A stretch of 41,090 nt of DNA from a virus. Both the position numbers and the translations under genes were made by a program. The notes beneath the pieces were generated by a model. It saw only the letters and a list, made by a program, of their open reading frames with translations. It did no database searches and was not told where the DNA came from. Positions within the stretch are counted from its first letter, which is position 1. Each line of letters starts with the position of its first letter. The stretch lies in the IMG/VR virus record IMGVR_UViG_3300033064_003260, positions 1-41,090 of that record; one strand, given 5' to 3'. Shown here piece after piece: positions 130 through 6,424 of this stretch.

Positions 130-157
130 AAGCCCCCCCGCATTTGCGGGGGGGCTT
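130..157. terminator. GC-rich perfect hairpin in divergent gap
   Basis: A 12-bp perfect stem (AAGCCCCCCCGC, loop ATTT, GCGGGGGGGCTT) lies between the leftward start at 44 and the rightward start at 210. Rightward it is followed by only a weak T-rich stretch (GCTTT). It could stop rightward transcription entering from the left, insulate the divergent genes, or form a 5' leader structure for the 210 gene. Its position upstream of both starts is odd for a plain terminator. Confidence 0.55.
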
Positions 158-171
158 GCTTTGGCCCAGAA

Positions 172-188
172 GTCTGGACAGGATTACC
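172..188 (+). promoter_or_regulatory. Intercistronic GTCTGGACA motif
   Basis: GTCTGGACAGGATTACC is a member of the repeated 17-base family with consensus GTCTGGACACGnnAACC. It lies 21 bases before the first rightward start, after the hairpin at 130-157. Probable protein-binding or transcription-start element; role inferred only from recurrence. Confidence 0.5.
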
Positions 189-209
189 ACAAGTGGAGGA
201 TGGACACCG

Positions 210-635
210 ATGAAACAGCCGATTTCAGTGCAAGATGCGGCGGCGATTCTGGGAATTTCCAGGGTGGCCGTCGCAAAGCGAATCCAGCGGGGGACACTTC
301 TGGCCCTGCCGCTGTCGAGCAAGGGTTGGATGGTCTGCCAAGAGGCCGTCGCCGGCAAGCCTCACTCACCGGAAGAGTTCGAGCGGGTCTGCTCTCGGTA
401 CATCTCTGTCCCAGAGGCCTGCGACATCGTCTGCGTGACTGACGGCATGGTGATCCGGATGCTCAACGACGGCCGGCTGAATGGATTCCGCCTCAACGAC
501 AACGCATGGGCGGTCGAGAGGCGGTCGGCGGAGAAAAACATCCGCGAGTACATGCGAACAGAATCCCAGGGCGGACGGCCCCGAGACCTGATCAAGTCGC
601 ATCGCCCGGCGAAGCGGCGGCAGAAAACCGCTTGA
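210..635 (+). CDS. Tandem helix-turn-helix DNA-binding protein
   Basis: 141 residues. Two excisionase/MerR-type helix-turn-helix units can be read in series: residues about 5-40 (ISVQDAAAILGISRVAVAKR followed by a GW-containing wing) and about 65-105 (YISVPEACDIV, VIRMLNDGRLNGFRL). The basic tail, rich in Arg and Lys, suits DNA contact. The start at 210 is chosen over the ATG at 144 because a purine-rich ribosome site (GTGGAGGA) precedes it by about 9 bases and because the HTH begins at once. As the first gene after the divergent gap it is a good candidate for a regulator of this element, perhaps of the repeated operators. The exact family is not identified. Confidence 0.75.
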   Translation: MKQPISVQDAAAILGISRVAVAKRIQRGTLLALPLSSKGWMVCQEAVAGKPHSPEEFERVCSRYISVPEACDIVCVTDGMVIRMLNDGRLNGFRLNDNAWAVERRSAEKNIREYMRTESQGGRPRDLIKSHRPAKRRQKTA

Positions 636-1113: not shown

Positions 1114-1392
1114 GTGGACGCAGTCTTCGTAATCGCATTTGTGGCCGCTGGATGCCCGCCGTGCGACGACTTCAAGGCCGATCTCCGGCATGGCAGCATC
1201 GAGAACGACGTCCGGATCGTGGTCGTGGACATCAAAGAGCGGCCGGAACTCGTCGCCAAGTGCCGCGTCACCGTCACGCCGACGTTCGTGGCGATCCGGG
1301 ACGAGCGGCAAGTCTTTCGCAAGTCTGGCTACACCTCGACGGAGTCGCTTAACCAGTGGCTGGAGGACGTAAAACCAGTTGCACTGAGATAG
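1114..1392 (+). CDS. Thioredoxin-like protein with CPPC motif
   Basis: 92 residues, the size of a minimal thioredoxin or glutaredoxin. It shows the order beta strand (VFVIAFVA), active-site GCPPCDDFKADL at about residues 14-25, a second strand (VRIVVVDI), and the cis-proline loop VTPTFVAI, as in thioredoxin folds. CPPC is an unusual but known active-site variant. The GTG at 1114 is the only reasonable start. A role as reductant for a phage enzyme or in cytoplasmic disulfide exchange is inferred. The ncRNA promoter at 1379-1406 overlaps its 3' end. Confidence 0.75.
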   Translation: MDAVFVIAFVAAGCPPCDDFKADLRHGSIENDVRIVVVDIKERPELVAKCRVTVTPTFVAIRDERQVFRKSGYTSTESLNQWLEDVKPVALR

Positions 1393-1406
1393 CGTGTCCG
1401 TACAAT
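1379..1406 (+). promoter_or_regulatory. Promoter for candidate small RNA
   Basis: TTGCAC (1379-1384), a 16-base spacer ending GTGTCCG, and TACAAT (1401-1406), five of six to the -10 consensus. The predicted start near 1413 is two bases before the closing stem of the RNA at 1415. GTGTCCGTAC (1394-1403) is the same inverted operator-like string as in the promoter at 632-659. Confidence 0.6.
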
Positions 1407-1412
1407 CACGAC

Positions 1413-1492
1413 CTGAGTCGCGTAGCGAAGGCATCGGTTACTTCATTACGGAAAGAACCACCGAGGCCGCTTGTTCTCGCGACTCTTTTTTT
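1413..1492 (+). ncRNA. Candidate Y RNA-like small RNA upstream of TROVE gene
   Basis: The roughly 75-80 base transcript predicted from the promoter at 1379-1406 has its two ends paired: GAGTCGCG (1415-1422) is the exact complement of CGCGACTC (1478-1485), followed at once by seven T (1486-1492), a Rho-independent end. Inside, AGCG/CGCT (1424-1427 with 1468-1471) and TCGGT/ACCGA (1434-1438 with 1460-1464) extend the structure. Bacterial Y RNAs that bind Ro60 are typically short, closed by a terminal stem and encoded next to the Ro60 gene, as here. I do not see the animal Y RNA bulged-C consensus clearly, so the Y RNA label rests on position and architecture. Confidence 0.5.
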
Positions 1493-1511: not shown

Positions 1512-2786
1512 GTGAAGACGAACGTCAAGCCCGCTCCTCGAACTGAGTCGCCGCTGGTCAGGCTTCGTCGCAGTGTCCTCTCGTGCCTCCTGTGGGAGGG
1601 CGAGTTCTACGAGGCCGGCGAATCGATCGCTGCTCGCATTGTCGGACTCTGCCGCGAAGTGCCGCCGCATGAGATCGCCTCGCTCGCGATCGCGGCCAGG
1701 ACGAAGTTTCATCTTCGTCATGTCTCGCTGCTCCTTGCTCGCGAGGTCGTGCGGCACGGACACGGTCCGATGGTCGCCGACACGGTCGATGCCGTGATCC
1801 AGCGAGCAGACGAACTGGCAGAATTTCTGTCGCTCTACTGGATGAGCGAGCGACAACCACTCTCGAACCAACTCAAGAAGGGTCTCGCGAGAGCCTTCCG
1901 CAGGTTCGACGCCCACCAACTCGCGAAGTACAACCGCGACGAGACGGTGAAACTCCGCGACGTCCTGTTCTTGTGCCACGCCAAGCCTGTCAACGACGAG
2001 CAGGCGGCAGTGTGGAAGGCTCTGATCGACGGCACGCTCGCGACTCCCGACACCTGGGAGGTCTCGCTCTCTGCTGGTTCGGACAAGAAGGCGACGTTCG
2101 AGCGGCTGATCCGCGAGGGATCGCTCGGCTATCTGGCTCTGCTTCGCAATCTTCGCAACATGGTCGAGGCCGGCTGCGACCTGTCGCTCGTCCGCACCGC
2201 GATCCTGGCTCGTCGAGGCGCTCATCGAGTGCTGCCGTTCCGGTATGTCGCGGCTGCACGGGCCGTGCCGCAACTCGAACCGACACTCGACACGGCACTC
2301 CTGGCCTCGCTGCTGGACGTTCCGGTCCTAAATGGCAAGACGATCGCCCTGGTGGACGTCTCGGGATCGATGGTCGAGCCGCTCTCGCAGAAGTCTGACC
2401 TCATGCGGATCGACGCAGCGGCCTCGCTGGCCTCGATCCTGCACTGCGACGACTTGCAAGTCTTCACGTTCTCCCAAGGTGTCGTCGAGGTTCCGCCCCG
2501 GAGAGGCATGGCCGGCATCGACGCGATCATTCGGTCGCAGCCTCACTCCTGCACCTACCTCGGCGCGGCGATCGAGTACATCAACCGTCTGCCTCACGAC
2601 CGGCTGATCGTCATCACCGACGAGCAGTCCCATGACTCCGTGCCGTCGCCTGTCGCCGGCAGGATGGCTTACTTGATCAACGTCGCCTCGTGCGAGCGCG
2701 GCGTGGCGAACGACTCCTGGACTCGGATCGACGGGTTCAGTGAGAACGTGATTGCCTACATCGCAGAGATCGAGTCGGGTCGTTGA
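1512..2786 (+). CDS. Ro60-like TROVE-vWA RNA-binding protein
   Basis: 424 residues from GTG 1512. Residues about 10-265 form a helical-repeat region typical of TROVE (for example ASLAIAARTKFHLRHVSLLL and LRNLRNMVEAG), the ring that holds RNA ends in Ro60. Residues about 276-424 form a von Willebrand A domain with an intact MIDAS: DVSGS (D282, S284, S286), T348 and ITDE (D370). Family members bind misfolded RNAs and Y RNAs and in Deinococcus tether PNPase to RNA. It is shorter than most bacterial Ro60 (about 500-540). GTG 1512 is chosen because AGGGAG lies 8 bases upstream; a longer reading from 1356 would run through the small RNA. The MoxR-type ATPase downstream is notable because vWA proteins often pair with MoxR. 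Confidence 0.88.
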   Translation: MKTNVKPAPRTESPLVRLRRSVLSCLLWEGEFYEAGESIAARIVGLCREVPPHEIASLAIAARTKFHLRHVSLLLAREVVRHGHGPMVADTVDAVIQRADELAEFLSLYWMSERQPLSNQLKKGLARAFRRFDAHQLAKYNRDETVKLRDVLFLCHAKPVNDEQAAVWKALIDGTLATPDTWEVSLSAGSDKKATFERLIREGSLGYLALLRNLRNMVEAGCDLSLVRTAILARRGAHRVLPFRYVAAARAVPQLEPTLDTALLASLLDVPVLNGKTIALVDVSGSMVEPLSQKSDLMRIDAAASLASILHCDDLQVFTFSQGVVEVPPRRGMAGIDAIIRSQPHSCTYLGAAIEYINRLPHDRLIVITDEQSHDSVPSPVAGRMAYLINVASCERGVANDSWTRIDGFSENVIAYIAEIESGR

Positions 2787-2803
2787 CTCTCTGCTGACGC
2801 GAA

Positions 2804-2840
2804 GGTAGCCTTTGTCTGCACACAGACACCTGGGGCTACC
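2804..2840 (+). promoter_or_regulatory. Leader hairpin covering the GTG start region
   Basis: GGTAGCC (2804-2810) pairs with GGCTACC (2834-2840), and inside it TGTCTG (2813-2818) pairs with CAGACA (2823-2828) around a CACA loop. The only Shine-Dalgarno-like run (GGGG, 2832-2835) lies in the right arm, so the fold could control translation of the gene starting at 2845. A TTGACT at 2783-2788, overlapping the TGA stop of the TROVE gene, may be a -35. Confidence 0.5.
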
Positions 2841-2844
2841 ATCC

Positions 2845-3045
2845 GTGGACGATCAGATCATCGAGTTCCTGTTGGCCGACGAAGGCCGAGACTTGCGACT
2901 CGCGGCCTTTGATGCCGTCGTCGCCACGGGCAGGCCGCTGCGGATGAATCTGCCGCAGGCCCTGGAACTGATCTCCTGGCTGGCCCGGCATCACGGCGAG
3001 CCCGGCGAAGCGGCCCGGCTGGCCGTCGAAATGCTGGCCGGCTGA
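2845..3045 (+). CDS. Small hypothetical protein
   Basis: 66 residues from GTG 2845 (VDDQIIEFLLADEGRDLRLA...). It is predicted mostly helical and acidic at the start, with a LELISWLARHHGEPGEAARLAVEML segment near the end; no family recognised. A longer reading from TTG 2812 would run through the hairpin at 2804-2840, so the shorter form is preferred. It lies between the TROVE gene and the conserved promoter block that begins six bases after its stop. Confidence 0.5.
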   Translation: MDDQIIEFLLADEGRDLRLAAFDAVVATGRPLRMNLPQALELISWLARHHGEPGEAARLAVEMLAG

Positions 3046-3050
3046 CCCCA

Positions 3051-3156
3051 GTTTCTCACTTTCCCAAGTGTCCAGTCAGGGAGGGCAGTGTGCTTTTCCC
3101 CGGGAAAGCCGCAGTTTTGACTGACCACTTGCTTTTCTTCCGACGTCGGTTATTCT
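3051..3156 (+). promoter_or_regulatory. Conserved promoter block, copy 1 (palindromic operator)
   Basis: The block opens with GTTTCTCA and AAGTGTCCAGTCAG, then CCCCGGGAAA, then a promoter: TTGCTT (3129-3134), 16-base spacer holding the palindrome CCGACGTCGG (3140-3149), and TATTCT (3151-3156). It drives the AAA+ gene at 3222. Four blocks of this kind occur in the window. An operator inside the spacer is a standard site for repression by occlusion of RNA polymerase. Confidence 0.75.
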
Positions 3157-3221
3157 TCTCCTGTCGCCGCGAACTGGTCGCGACGGCAAGCCCAGCCCAG
3201 AAATGAGAAGGAAGCCCACCC

Positions 3222-4559
3222 ATGAGCAACGCAGCCACCACCCCCGCTTGGCAGTCATACAAGATCGGAACCGTCGTCACCGTCGCCGACGGTCGCGAGT
3301 TCACGATCACCTCGATCGACGAGCGGAAGACCTCTGGCGGCTACTCCAGCCGCCTGTACACGCTGTGGGGCCCCGACGGAAAGATCGTCGTCAAGACCAG
3401 CCGCAGCCTCACTCTGTGGATTGAAGGGAAGTCTGGAGACGAGAACTCGCCTCCGCCAAAGGAGCCCCAGGCCGTCGTCGAGGTCGAGGTCGATGCCTCG
3501 CTGGGCCAGGCCGCCGTCGAGGCCGATGCCTCGCTGGGCCAGTCCGTTGTCGAGGCCGAGGCTCGCGAGGTCGATATCTCGCTGGGCAAGGCGATCGCCG
3601 CTGCCGTCGAGTCCTATCTGTCGCCGGTGGGCAAGAGCGGAGTCGATCGCGACGAGATCGCCGAGATCGTGCGTGAGGAGATCGTCCGCGTCGGCATCGC
3701 CCGTAAGGTCGAGGTCACCCGCCACGACGGCACCGTCGCGAACGTGGGTGTCCAGCACTCGTCGTTCGAGGCTGTGCTGCGGATCGTAGCCCAGCGGATC
3801 AACGTCTGGCTCCCCGGCCCTGCCGGCTCGGGCAAGACGAGTGCAGCCGCAGCGGTCTCGGAGGCTCTGACCCTGCCGTTCTACGCTGTGAGCGTCGGGC
3901 CGCAGACCAGCCAGAGCCAACTCCTGGGCTACTACGATGCCAACGGGAAGTATGTCACGACGCAGTTGCGGCAGGCTTTCGAGCACGGCGGCGTGTTCTT
4001 GCTCGACGAGGTTGACGCGGGCTCGCCCGCCGTGCTGGTGACGATCAACGCCCTGCTGGCGAACGGCCATGCGTCGTTCCCCGACCGGGTCGTCGGGCGT
4101 CATCCGGACTTCGTTCTGCTCGCGGCCGGCAACACCTACGGCCAGGGTGCGGATCGGGAGTACGTCGGACGGCAGCAACTCGACGCGGCGACCCTCGATC
4201 GGTTCGCGGTCCTCGACTGGGAGTACGACACGGCTCTGGAGGCTCACTACGCGGGCCTGCCGCTCGATGTGTTCGAGGGCCTGCCCAAGGCCAAGAGGTG
4301 GAAGTTCCTGCCCGTCGACGACGCGGCAAACGTCCAGGCTCGGTGCGAGGAGTATGCCCGCGAGGCCGTGAAGATTCGACGGGCAGTGGCCGGCTTCGGC
4401 AAGGGGCTGCGGCTCCTCGTCGGTCCCCGCTCGATCTACAACGGGCTCGCCCTCATTCGGGCTGGCTTCAGGGTGCAGGATGTGCTGGAACTGGTTGTCT
4501 GGAAGGGCTGCGACAAGGACACCCGCGCTAAGGTCGAGCAGGCCGCGAAGGCTCTCTGA
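3222..4559 (+). CDS. MoxR/CbbQ-type AAA+ ATPase
   Basis: 445 residues. Residues 1-70 form a beta-rich N-terminal domain; residues about 85-125 hold a low-complexity linker with three DASLGQ-like repeats (DASLGQ, DASLGQ, DISLGK). The AAA+ core has Walker A GPAGSGKT (199-206), Walker B FLLDEVD (259-265), sensor-1 asparagine in LLAAGNT (304) and an arginine-finger region DAATLDRF (321-328), as in the AAA_5/MoxR group that remodels partner complexes, often through vWA proteins. ATG 3222 follows AGAAGGAAG. It has its own promoter block and lies just after the TROVE-vWA gene and before two paralogous unknowns, suggesting a functional module. Target unknown. Confidence 0.87.
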   Translation: MSNAATTPAWQSYKIGTVVTVADGREFTITSIDERKTSGGYSSRLYTLWGPDGKIVVKTSRSLTLWIEGKSGDENSPPPKEPQAVVEVEVDASLGQAAVEADASLGQSVVEAEAREVDISLGKAIAAAVESYLSPVGKSGVDRDEIAEIVREEIVRVGIARKVEVTRHDGTVANVGVQHSSFEAVLRIVAQRINVWLPGPAGSGKTSAAAAVSEALTLPFYAVSVGPQTSQSQLLGYYDANGKYVTTQLRQAFEHGGVFLLDEVDAGSPAVLVTINALLANGHASFPDRVVGRHPDFVLLAAGNTYGQGADREYVGRQQLDAATLDRFAVLDWEYDTALEAHYAGLPLDVFEGLPKAKRWKFLPVDDAANVQARCEEYAREAVKIRRAVAGFGKGLRLLVGPRSIYNGLALIRAGFRVQDVLELVVWKGCDKDTRAKVEQAAKAL

Positions 4560-4565
4560 TGAATT

Positions 4566-4583
4566 GTCTGGAGACGGCAAGCC
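4566..4583 (+). promoter_or_regulatory. Intercistronic GTCTGGA motif
   Basis: GTCTGGAGACGGCAAGCC, a member of the repeated family, starts 6 bases after the stop of the AAA+ gene and its last three bases begin the hairpin at 4581. Confidence 0.45.
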
Positions 4584-4617
4584 TCCCCGGCCTCGTTGGG
4601 CTCGGGGCCGGGGAGGC
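4581..4617 (+). terminator. Strong intergenic hairpin without U-run
   Basis: GCCTCCCCGGCC (4581-4592) is perfectly complementary to GGCCGGGGAGGC (4606-4617), a 12-bp all-GC-rich stem with a 13-base loop. No T-run follows, so it may be a pause, an mRNA-stabilising end or a processing site between the AAA+ gene and its downstream partner rather than a classical terminator. Confidence 0.45.
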
Positions 4618-4660
4618 GGGAATCGAGACGAGCCCACACACCGCACCGGAGACTTGAGAC

Positions 4661-5479
4661 ATGATTGACAAGGCCACGACCGTTGTGTTTGAGAGCGTCG
4701 GCGAATTCCTGGCCGATGCCTGCAAAGACTCCCACCCCGACTCCCACGGGAAGGGCGAAAAGGAGTTCCACGGCACGAACACGTTCCAAGAAGCCGTCGA
4801 TCTGGCGACGAAGGGCTGGCCGAGTGGCCGTCGGCGACTGGAGTCGCTGCGAGCCGAACTCGACGAGGCCGTCCGCAGGGCCGTCGAGGCCAAGGCCGCG
4901 ACTCAGCACTATGACGTTGTCGGAGACTACATCGACGTCGGCCGGGTCTTGGAAAGCGAGCCAGAGTGCTGCGGCTCGTACCTCGACGCCGAGGGTGGCC
5001 ACACCAGATCGAAAGTCGTGAAGATCGTCGCCAACGTGTCCGCCCTGGGCCGTGTCGAAGAGCAGCAGATTTTCTCCCTGGGCGCGGCGATCTATGCCGC
5101 GATCGATCTCGTCGAGTCGCTTGGTAGCCGAGTCGAACTCTGGCTCGGCTCTGGCTCGGAGCAGCGCGGCGGCAAGCGGCTCAATGTCCTCGTCAAGATC
5201 AAGGATGCGGCCCAGCCGTTCGAGGCCGACCGGCTCGCCTTCTACCTGTGCAGTGCGGCCAGTCTGCGACGGCTTTTCTTCAGCGTCGAGTGTCAGCGAG
5301 GCTTCTACCCGTCCTGCACCCGCACGACCTATCTGGATGCCGAAGAGGGGACGATCATCACGGCCGAGGCACGGCACGACGACCACACCCAGGCCCGCCG
5401 GATCGCCCGGGTGATCGAGACTTGCGAGGCCTGCGGTGTCCGGTTCAGCGAACAGGAACTGGCCCAAATCACGGCCTAA
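4661..5479 (+). CDS. Conserved phage protein, paralogue A
   Basis: 272 residues. It aligns by eye over its full length with the next gene (5561-6424): both have an FxxTxTFxEAVDLAxxGWxxG segment near residue 45, a D(V)xGxYIDVxRxLxxEPECCG segment near residue 85-105, a SK/SR-VVxI strand, and a hydrophobic AAIDLVESxGxRxE helix. This pattern matches an uncharacterised phage family often found near MoxR-like ATPases (possibly DUF7192; label from memory and unverified). No catalytic motif is evident. ATG 4661 begins at the expected point, though its Shine-Dalgarno (CCGGAGACTTGAG) is modest. Confidence 0.7.
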   Translation: MIDKATTVVFESVGEFLADACKDSHPDSHGKGEKEFHGTNTFQEAVDLATKGWPSGRRRLESLRAELDEAVRRAVEAKAATQHYDVVGDYIDVGRVLESEPECCGSYLDAEGGHTRSKVVKIVANVSALGRVEEQQIFSLGAAIYAAIDLVESLGSRVELWLGSGSEQRGGKRLNVLVKIKDAAQPFEADRLAFYLCSAASLRRLFFSVECQRGFYPSCTRTTYLDAEEGTIITAEARHDDHTQARRIARVIETCEACGVRFSEQELAQITA

Positions 5480-5490
5480 AACCAGGGGAC

Positions 5491-5519
5491 TTGCTTTTAG
5501 CCGACGTCGGACATATATT
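5491..5519 (+). promoter_or_regulatory. Palindrome promoter, short form
   Basis: TTGCTT (5491-5496), CCGACGTCGG (5501-5510) and TATATT (5514-5519, 17-base spacing). This copy lacks the upstream GTTTCTCA...GTGTCC half of the larger blocks. It separates the two paralogous genes and gives the second its own promoter. Confidence 0.7.
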
Positions 5520-5560
5520 TCCCTCAGTCAGACACAGCCCCGCCCAGGAGACCCAGACCA

Positions 5561-6424
5561 ATGGCCACCATCGTCAAGCGATTCGACTCAGTCCGCGATC
5601 TGCTCGCCGAGGTCACCGACACTTCGCGGCCGATCAAGTCGGGACTCAAGGTGACCTCGCAGGATAGGGGCCGCGAAGGCTTCTTCTGGACGAAGACTTT
5701 CGGCGAGGCCGTCGATCTCGCCCGTGGCGGGTGGGCCGAAGGCACGGCCAAGATCGTCAAGCATCGCGAGGCCTGCTCGGCATTCCTGGCCGCCGCCAAG
5801 ACCGCCAAGACTCGCGAGTTTGGTTGGGACGTCACCGGGCAGTTCATCGACGTCTCGCGGCTCCTGAGCGGCGAGCCCGAATGCTGCGGCAACGAGTTCG
5901 ACGGCGGCAACCAGATCGCCTCGCGAGTGGTCTCGATCCGGCTCAATCAGAGTGTGTCCGGCGGGATCAGTGCCGACACGATCTGCGCTCGCGGCGTCAC
6001 GGTGCTGGTCGCGGTCGATCTGCTGGAGTCGCGCGGCGTCCGCTGCGAGGTCACGGTCTCGAAGGGCTCGAAGAGTACGGGCTGTGCCGGCTCTGTCCGA
6101 AACTTGCAGGTCGATTCGCACGTTGTCGTGAAGCAGGCCGGCGACCCGGTCGACCTCGACAAGTTGGCCTTCTGGGTCGCGCACCCTGCCTCGTTTCGCC
6201 GGCTGGGCTTCCGGCTCAACGAGCAGAACGGACTCTCGCCCTGCGGTGCTCAACCGGCTCGCCTGAGCGACTACGGAGCCGACCCGAACGTCATCGAGAT
6301 CGACGAGATTCTGTCCGGTGCCAGCCTGAGCGAGAGGCAGTTGCGAGCCAACGTCCTGGCGATCGCCAAGGGCTGCGGCCTGGAGTTCAGCGACGAGGAA
6401 CTTGCGGAGATCGCCCGATCATGA
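5561..6424 (+). CDS. Conserved phage protein, paralogue B
   Basis: 287 residues, homologous throughout to paralogue A at 4661-5479 (shared EAVDLARGGW, GQFIDVSRLLSGEPECCG and VAVDLLESRGVRCEV segments). The pair implies an old gene duplication followed by divergence, each copy keeping its own promoter. Function unknown; shared context with the MoxR ATPase and TROVE-vWA protein suggests participation in that module. ATG 5561 lies about 42 bases after the -10 with CAGGAGACCC upstream. Its TGA stop overlaps the next ATG. Confidence 0.72.
   Translation: MATIVKRFDSVRDLLAEVTDTSRPIKSGLKVTSQDRGREGFFWTKTFGEAVDLARGGWAEGTAKIVKHREACSAFLAAAKTAKTREFGWDVTGQFIDVSRLLSGEPECCGNEFDGGNQIASRVVSIRLNQSVSGGISADTICARGVTVLVAVDLLESRGVRCEVTVSKGSKSTGCAGSVRNLQVDSHVVVKQAGDPVDLDKLAFWVAHPASFRRLGFRLNEQNGLSPCGAQPARLSDYGADPNVIEIDEILSGASLSERQLRANVLAIAKGCGLEFSDEELAEIARS

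What the first reader, a model, noticed from the sequence alone, without database searches (positions are those of the whole stretch)
1512..6424. TROVE-vWA, MoxR ATPase and two paralogues may form one machine
MoxR AAA+ proteins often work on vWA proteins. Here the vWA half is fused to an RNA-binding TROVE domain, the MoxR gene follows after one small gene, and two paralogous unknown proteins come next under their own palindrome promoter. This suggests a remodelling ATPase acting on a Ro60-like RNA complex, a combination I do not know as described.
Basis: inference. Interest (0 to 1): 0.7.

Follow-up and report, generated by a model that had tools for sequence, protein, structure and literature searches.

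The report
Phage Ro60-Y RNA beside MoxR-vWA module
A phage carries two neighbouring but separate machines, an RNA-binding Ro60-like protein with its own small Y-like RNA and an ATPase motor whose likely partner is a protein family of unknown function (DUF7192) that turns out to have a von Willebrand A fold, so the neighbourhood is real but the proposed single machine probably is not.

Summary
The single-machine idea is not borne out for TROVE. (1) MoxR's partner is most likely DUF7192. The two lie close together in all eight phage lineages inspected, mostly without TROVE, and two AlphaFold models of DUF7192 match best the vWA/MIDAS domains that dock on MoxR-type motors (NorD, midasin). (2) TROVE's partner is an unannotated ~76-nt Y-like RNA at 1413-1490, directly upstream. 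A covariance model built without this clade finds it as the only hit in the window (66 bits, E 4e-15), and 12 of 14 pairs covary. (3) Of 50 other TROVE-bearing virus records of 35 kb or more, one has this MoxR and DUF7192. MoxR-linked TROVEs form one clade. A syntenic contig (L082) keeps MoxR and DUF7192 but lacks exactly the TROVE-Y RNA cassette. Best reading: two modules side by side, a known kind (Ro60-Y RNA RNP) and a new variant of the phage MoxR-vWA (CobST/NorQD-like) pair. Physical interactions and substrates are inferred, not shown.

The parts
1379..1406 (+). promoter-like TTGCAC-16-TACAAT ending 8 nt before the Y-like RNA stem
   Evidence: by eye; TACAAT/TACACT kept at the same place in L002-L005 and L086; weaker than the consensus scan threshold, so not listed
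1413..1490 (+). Y-like RNA: stem GAGTCGCG (1415-1422) / CGCGACTC (1478-1485), inner stem GGC-A-TCGG/CCGA-GGCC, conserved TTACTTC and CGCTTGTTC, then T7 (1486-1492)
   Evidence: covariance model built without this clade: 66.3 bits, E 3.9e-15, only hit in the window; fold z -3.3 to -3.6; covariation
1512..2786 (+). TROVE (Ro60-like HEAT ring) plus vWA domain protein, 424 aa, MIDAS motif DVSGS
   Evidence: PF05731 E 1.3e-15, phrog_850 E 2.3e-40; aligns over 24-423 with solved TROVE proteins 9l5y/9kop E 1e-24
2812..3045 (+). small ORF, up to 77 aa, no known family; conserved in L003, L004, L082, not found in L005 and L086
3129..3156 (+). MoxR promoter-like site: TTGCTT, palindrome CCGACGTCGG (3140-3149) in the spacer, TTATTC
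   Evidence: the same arrangement before MoxR in L003, L082 and (one mismatch) L004
3222..4559 (+). MoxR AAA+ ATPase of the CobS/CbbQ/NorQ/midasin type, 445 aa; Walker A GPAGSGKT, Walker B FLLDEVD
4661..5479 (+). DUF7192 paralogue a, 272 aa; predicted vWA/MIDAS-fold partner of MoxR (NVSAL at the MIDAS position)
   Evidence: PF23822 E 3e-36; AlphaFold model pLDDT 80 matching NorD vWA and Rea1 MIDAS
5490..5518 (+). promoter-like site with palindrome CCGACGTCGG (5501-5510) before the second paralogue
   Evidence: same in L082 at 9723
5561..6424 (+). DUF7192 paralogue b, 287 aa (NQSVS at the MIDAS position)
   Evidence: PF23822 E 7e-32; 34.5% identical to paralogue a

Best explanation
Two separate modules lie side by side. 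Module 1 (1379-2786) is a phage Ro60-type ribonucleoprotein: a ~76-nt Y-like hairpin RNA with its own promoter-like site and 3' T-run is made just upstream of the TROVE-vWA gene, and its basal stem would bind the TROVE ring, as in bacterial Rsr-Y RNA particles, to bind or gate structured or damaged RNA during infection. Module 2 (3129-6424) is a MoxR AAA+ motor of the NorQ/CobS/midasin type with two vWA-fold adaptors (DUF7192). By analogy with NorQD, the adaptor's segment before the first vWA strand (conserved DVGRVLSGEPECC) and its C-terminus would dock on the hexamer, which then twists or pulls a client protein; having two or three paralogous adaptors suggests more than one client or a mixed complex. 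Shown by computation: gene content, order, the RNA's conserved covarying structure, DUF7192's predicted fold match, conserved MoxR-DUF7192 linkage, and absence of the TROVE cassette from a syntenic relative. Inferred: RNA-protein binding, finger-in-pore docking, separate function, clients. The genes' location at genome ends in several phages hints at host takeover rather than virion assembly, but this is weak.
For: MoxR-DUF7192 close linkage in every MoxR locus inspected: window, L082, L084, L085, L086, L005, Tunturi_4, LeBron, Kayvirus V1SA15, Kudefre, phiM5, RHph_X2_24, down to about 20-30% identity. Genus counts agree: Staphylococcus 236 MoxR and 227 DUF7192 records, Mycobacterium 82 and 88. 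Two DUF7192 models from members about 19% identical: Foldseek best NorD vWA (9qh6_G E 1.7e-3, 9qhd_G prob 0.97); VIA-align ranks 1-9 all NorD vWA or Rea1/MDN1 MIDAS, Z 8.1-6.7 and 9.2-6.2, next row 5.5 and 5.4. The AAA+ profile independently hits midasin, CobS, CbbQ and NorQ, motors that use such vWA domains (PMC9976466, PMC13036017). Y-like RNA. Motif copies: 103 in 55.6 kb upstream of TROVE against 12 in 1,403 kb elsewhere. No RNA hit in 11 loci that hold DUF7192 but no TROVE gene in the stretch held. Natural lack of the TROVE-Y RNA cassette in L082. 1 of 50 co-occurrence; one TROVE clade.
Against: TROVE-MoxR-DUF7192 order survives in a second lineage at 53-64% identity although the small gene between them differs (L005, L086), which could mean selection to stay together. 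Z-scores of 8-9 lie only just above the range of common arrangements, and the second model has pLDDT 62.5. In the window both DUF7192 copies have N instead of the first MIDAS Asp, so MIDAS binding may be lost. L082 is a 10.9-kb fragment; TROVE could lie elsewhere in that genome. LeBron carries a Ro-like DUF2828 gene 29 kb from its MoxR-DUF7192 pair. The MoxR relatives of cyanophages and Listeria phages were not inspected for DUF7192.
Confidence: 0.77

Rival explanations
1. One reading: the MoxR ATPase acts on the vWA half of TROVE and remodels or loads RNA into the Ro60-like ring, with the paralogues as accessory subunits.
For: Adjacency here and in L004, L005/L086; TROVE vWA has an intact DxSGS motif.
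Against: 49 of 50 long TROVE records lack this MoxR; MoxR-DUF7192 without TROVE in five other phage groups and in syntenic L082; MoxR already has a predicted vWA-fold partner; TROVE shows no insertion between ring and MIDAS strand where NorD has its docking finger; TROVE and MoxR appear to have separate promoters.
Confidence: 0.08
2. MoxR and DUF7192 are the phage counterpart of CobST and serve metal insertion or cobalamin supply by joining host CobN. (A reading of what module 2 does; compatible with two separate modules.)
For: MoxR profile hits CobS structures; cobST pairs are widespread in tailed viruses and were proposed to hijack host CobN (PMC8651126); PHROGs label the ATPase family 'porphyrin biosynthesis'.
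Against: DUF7192 shows no Pfam match to CobT, and midasin and NorQ are hit as well as CobS, so the client cannot be read from the motor.
Confidence: 0.15
3. MoxR-DUF7192 is a virion or tail assembly chaperone, as proposed for the MoxR-vWA pairs of group 2.2 jumbo phages and reported for an Acidianus virus. (Also compatible with two separate modules.)
For: Precedent in PMC7824862.
Against: The genes lie away from annotated structural genes and near genome ends in LeBron, Kudefre and phiM5.
Confidence: 0.15
4. DUF7192 is not a vWA partner; the linkage to MoxR reflects something else, such as a shared substrate.
For: No sequence-level vWA hit; moderate Z and a partly low-confidence model.
Against: Two models of distant members rank only AAA+-docking vWA domains on top; D-x-T/N-x-S at the MIDAS position in phiM5 and L084 members.
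Confidence: 0.13

Closest known systems
Bacterial Ro60/Rsr-Y RNA ribonucleoprotein (D. radiodurans RYPER; Salmonella rsr-yrlA)
   Same: TROVE plus vWA protein; small hairpin RNA with a conserved basal stem encoded just upstream; many phage relatives also carry a permuted tRNA-like module like YrlA.
   Different: The window's RNA is a single short hairpin without the tRNA-like module (43 of 81 relatives have one); no RtcB in the window; PNPase tethering untested.
NorQ-NorD (also CbbQ-CbbO, midasin/Rea1) MoxR-vWA motors
   Same: AAA+ of the same type beside a protein whose predicted fold best matches NorD vWA and Rea1 MIDAS; conserved segment at the position of the NorD finger.
   Different: DUF7192 is short (about 280 aa), lacks the large N-terminal target domain, has a degenerate MIDAS in most members, and comes in 1-3 paralogous copies.
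Phage CobST pairs and metallopeptidase-vWA/MoxR pairs of jumbo phages
   Same: Phage-encoded MoxR plus vWA gene pair.
   Different: The partner is DUF7192, listed only as of unknown function in Pfam and PHROGs, without a peptidase domain.
DUF2828/DUF7788 Ro-like proteins (phage 'RNA-binding protein', 676 phage records)
   Same: Ring-plus-vWA architecture within phrog_850.
   Different: A different Pfam family from PF05731 TROVE; in LeBron it sits 29 kb from the MoxR-DUF7192 pair.

Membership tests
Ro60/TROVE-Y RNA RNP | TROVE domain (PF05731) | tested here: met
   58 bits against cut-off 23; PDB TROVE proteins E 1e-24
Ro60/TROVE-Y RNA RNP | vWA domain with DxSxS MIDAS motif | tested here: met
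   VWA_2 E 1.5e-5, just under the curated cut-off; DVSGS read directly
Ro60/TROVE-Y RNA RNP | Y RNA with conserved basal stem encoded beside the gene | tested here: met
   66.3 bits at 1413-1490, model built without this clade; covariation score 0.697 against 0.21 shuffled and at most 0.19 slid
Ro60/TROVE-Y RNA RNP | tRNA-like module in at least one Y RNA | tested here: not met
   none upstream of TROVE in the window clade (no tRNA); the works-like claim is unaffected
Ro60/TROVE-Y RNA RNP | RNA binding by the protein; link to PNPase | not testable with these tools
   needs biochemistry
MoxR-vWA motor pair (NorQD/CobST type) | AAA+ of the MoxR type with Walker A and B | tested here: met
MoxR-vWA motor pair (NorQD/CobST type) | linked gene with a vWA fold | tested here: met
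   DUF7192 models rank NorD/Rea1 vWA first; predicted, not solved
MoxR-vWA motor pair (NorQD/CobST type) | complete MIDAS DxSxS-T-D | tested here: not met
   window copies have NVSAL and NQSVS; DVTSS and DVNAS in phiM5 and L084. NorD MIDAS mutants still bind NorQ (PMC9976466)
MoxR-vWA motor pair (NorQD/CobST type) | finger inserted before the MIDAS strand that enters the pore | tested here: inconclusive
   conserved DVGRVLSGEPECC lies there but is low-confidence in the model
MoxR-vWA motor pair (NorQD/CobST type) | physical complex and ATP-driven remodelling | not testable with these tools
   needs co-purification and ATPase assays
Cobaltochelatase CobST | CobT family membership of the vWA partner | tested here: inconclusive
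   no CobT model among Pfam hits; absence from the fold list is not evidence
TROVE-MoxR single machine (reader) | co-occurrence of TROVE and MoxR across independent lineages | tested here: not met
   1 of 50 records; one TROVE clade

The most novel reading that the evidence does not exclude
In this phage clade the Ro60-like RNP has been recruited as a client of the MoxR-DUF7192 motor, so that an AAA+ engine with vWA adaptors opens or loads a Ro ring; the conserved TROVE-MoxR-DUF7192 order over 36% sequence divergence would then reflect function.
Probability: 0.08. Interest if true: 0.8.

Novelty: new variant of a known kind. Interest (0 to 1): 0.45.

Why it matters
It gives a testable role, vWA adaptor of a MoxR motor, to DUF7192, a family found in hundreds of Staphylococcus and Mycobacterium phage records that also carry this ATPase, and so far listed only as a domain of unknown function. 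It also supplies an alignment and covariance model for the Y-like RNAs of phage TROVE genes, which no Y RNA family of Rfam caught above its threshold in the loci searched.

Tried and rejected
Rfam at gathering thresholds found nothing in the window. Best sub-threshold match of the 1413-1490 RNA is Vault RNA (18.2 bits, gathering 34, E 0.12); relatives L028 and L076 do not repeat it and L076 weakly hits YrlB, so I reject a vault RNA assignment. PADLOC gave no convincing defence assignment (weak IetA hits look like generic ATPase matches). RtcB is absent from the window and present in 4 of 50 TROVE records, so an RNA-repair operon is not supported. The LeBron hit of phrog_850 is DUF2828/DUF7788 and was not counted as PF05731 TROVE. 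phrog_249 matches at E 1e-3 to 1e-6 cover only 30-70 residues, look like generic ATPase fragments and were not counted as this MoxR. Chen et al. 2014 on bacterial Y RNAs is not held in the library.
Full report
What is there. The window is a 41,090-nt virus record of GC 62% with genes mostly on the plus strand, including helicases, an exonuclease, a polymerase/primase and a methyltransferase. The two 'unknown paralogues' are DUF7192 (PF23822), 34.5% identical to each other. The palindrome CCGACGTCGG occurs five times exactly, each time between a TTGMYT-like hexamer and a TTATTM/CATATA-like hexamer; it marks the promoter-like sites of MoxR and of the second paralogue, and three later sites, but not TROVE or the first paralogue.

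TROVE has an RNA partner. Reading upstream of TROVE genes in 36 relatives showed a repeated motif, GYGWAG..CGGTTACTTC....CCG..CGCTTGTTCCCGC. With a strict 5' pattern there are 103 copies in 55.6 kb upstream of TROVE (53 of 81 loci), 12 in 1,403 kb elsewhere on the same strand and 1 on the other strand. An alignment of 24 short forms folds into two helices; 12 of 14 pairs change on both sides, 90.8% of cells pair (64% in shuffles), and the covariation score is 0.697 against 0.21 for shuffles and at most 0.19 for slid partners. A covariance model built from 18 sequences outside the window's clade finds one place in the window, 1413-1490, 66.3 bits, E 3.9e-15. It also finds RNAs before TROVE in L002-L005 and L086, none in eleven loci that hold DUF7192 but no TROVE in the stretch held, and 75 hits in 51 further TROVE loci, most of them within 1 kb of the TROVE gene. 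About half of the loci also carry a permuted tRNA-like segment (T-arm before D-arm) upstream; a tRNA-like domain is a known part of bacterial YrlA (PMC8394870). The window's clade has short hairpins only. Y RNAs near Ro-like genes of phages have been suggested before: PMC12282133 proposes them for a Listeria phage and cites Chen et al. 2014 (RNA 20:1715) for mycobacteriophages, a paper I could not read.

MoxR has a likely protein partner other than TROVE. In all MoxR loci inspected, from Kayvirus to Sinorhizobium phage phiM5, a DUF7192 gene follows within about 0.01-0.4 kb (two small genes intervene in RHph_X2_24). These are eight lineages; the MoxR relatives of cyanophages and Listeria phages were not inspected. 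AlphaFold2 of window paralogue a (14 rows, pLDDT 80, pTM 0.78) gave best Foldseek hits to NorD vWA in NorQD complexes (E 1.7e-3 and 2.1e-3) and, by VIA-align, nine leading rows that are all Rea1/MDN1 MIDAS or NorD vWA (Z 8.1 to 6.7), followed by Z 5.5. A second model, of the phiM5-like DUF7192 (L105, 17-22% identical to the others, pLDDT 62.5), gave the same nine entries on top, Z 9.2 to 6.2, then 5.4. The AAA+ profile, by sequence, hits midasin, CobS, CbbQ and NorQ. Motor and adaptor thus point to the same systems independently. In NorQD a finger of the vWA domain enters the pore and the C-terminus binds the ring, while MIDAS residues are not needed for binding the motor (PMC13036017, PMC9976466). 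DUF7192 has a conserved DVGRVLSGEPECC segment just before its first vWA strand; that this is where the NorD finger sits is my reading of the families, and this part of the model is low-confidence. The MIDAS position reads DVTSS in phiM5, DVNAS in L084, and N in place of D in most members including the window.

Are the two one machine? Of 50 TROVE-bearing virus records of at least 35 kb, one (L005's contig) has this MoxR, and the same one has DUF7192, in three copies. L086 adds a closely similar second contig. The TROVE tree puts the MoxR-linked sequences in one clade (SH-aLRT 95; quick tree; L002 and L003 are labelled by kinship, since their contigs end before MoxR). Annotated phages with TROVE (Xanthomonas 10KY502B, CcrColossus, crAss001, Rhizobium TM21B, Microcystis Mvi-JY20, Gordonia Neville and VanLee) have no DUF7192 match and no strong MoxR match. 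Contig L082 keeps the order HTH, g642, g868, thioredoxin-like, small ORF, MoxR (75%), DUF7192a (78%), DUF7192b (67%), but the TROVE gene and its RNA are missing exactly between the thioredoxin-like gene and the small ORF. TROVE and its RNA therefore behave as a cassette that can be absent without loss of the MoxR-DUF7192 genes. Against this, TROVE-MoxR-DUF7192 order is kept between the window and L005/L086 over 53-64% identity, so a clade-specific functional link cannot be excluded.

Mechanism. Most likely (0.77): a Ro60-type RNP (TROVE plus Y-like RNA) next to a NorQD/CobST-like motor with DUF7192 as vWA adaptors. The RNA's conservation, the fold match and the linkage are shown by computation; binding, docking and clients are inferred. 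Candidate roles of the motor are host takeover, metal-centre assembly (CobST-like, PMC8651126) or virion assembly (PMC7824862); the data do not decide.

Known and new. TROVE in phages is known (phrog_850; PMC7824862), and Y RNAs near phage Ro genes are known in principle. Phage MoxR-vWA pairs are known (cobST, PMC8651126; jumbo phage metallopeptidase-vWA, PMC7824862). What I did not find described is DUF7192 as a vWA-fold adaptor (no paper in the held library mentions DUF7192) or this side-by-side arrangement. I rate it a new variant of a known kind, of moderate interest.

Noticed in passing
window 3140, 5501, 8301, 9632, 15271: Palindrome CCGACGTCGG sits in the spacer of five promoter-like sites, conserved before MoxR and DUF7192b in L082; looks like the operator of a phage regulon whose regulator is unidentified.
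   Followed up: partly
window 4582-4617: Strong GC-rich hairpin without a T-run between MoxR and DUF7192a, with equivalents at the same place in L004, L005, L082 and L086.
   Followed up: no
L088 6800-6857, 7723-7784, 9958-10015, 11540-11600: Four type-P5 twister ribozymes in Tunturiibacter phage Tunturi_4 lie between genes; two of them flank the DUF7192 gene.
   Followed up: no
window 1413-1490: The Y-like RNA shares CGGUUACUUC with vault RNA (RF00006, 18.2 bits, below threshold). Not repeated in the two relatives tested.
   Followed up: partly
L006, L007, L010, L024, L028 and 38 other loci, within 700 nt upstream of TROVE: Permuted tRNA-like segments (T-arm then D-arm) upstream of TROVE; some may be annotated as ordinary tRNAs in phage records (for example L094 tRNA-Thr 5714-5781).
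   Followed up: partly
NC_014461 38743-40161 (L106 4744-6162): LeBron gp53, a DUF2828/DUF7788 Ro-like protein with relatives in 676 phage records, co-occurs with MoxR-DUF7192 in cluster L mycobacteriophages but 29 kb away on the other strand.
   Followed up: partly
L092 1349-1546 (MF074189): A small ORF nested out of frame inside the phiM5 MoxR gene is annotated as detected in the phage particle proteome.
   Followed up: no
L082 10666-10892: A third DUF7192 gene starts at the contig end; L005 and L086 also have three copies, so copy number varies in the clade.
   Followed up: partly
window 144-635: Excisionase-like HTH gene conserved upstream of the whole cluster in L002-L005, L082 and L086.
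   Followed up: no
L028 18038-18229: Strong hit to the RT-15 RNA family (174 bits), downstream of TROVE in this phage.
   Followed up: no
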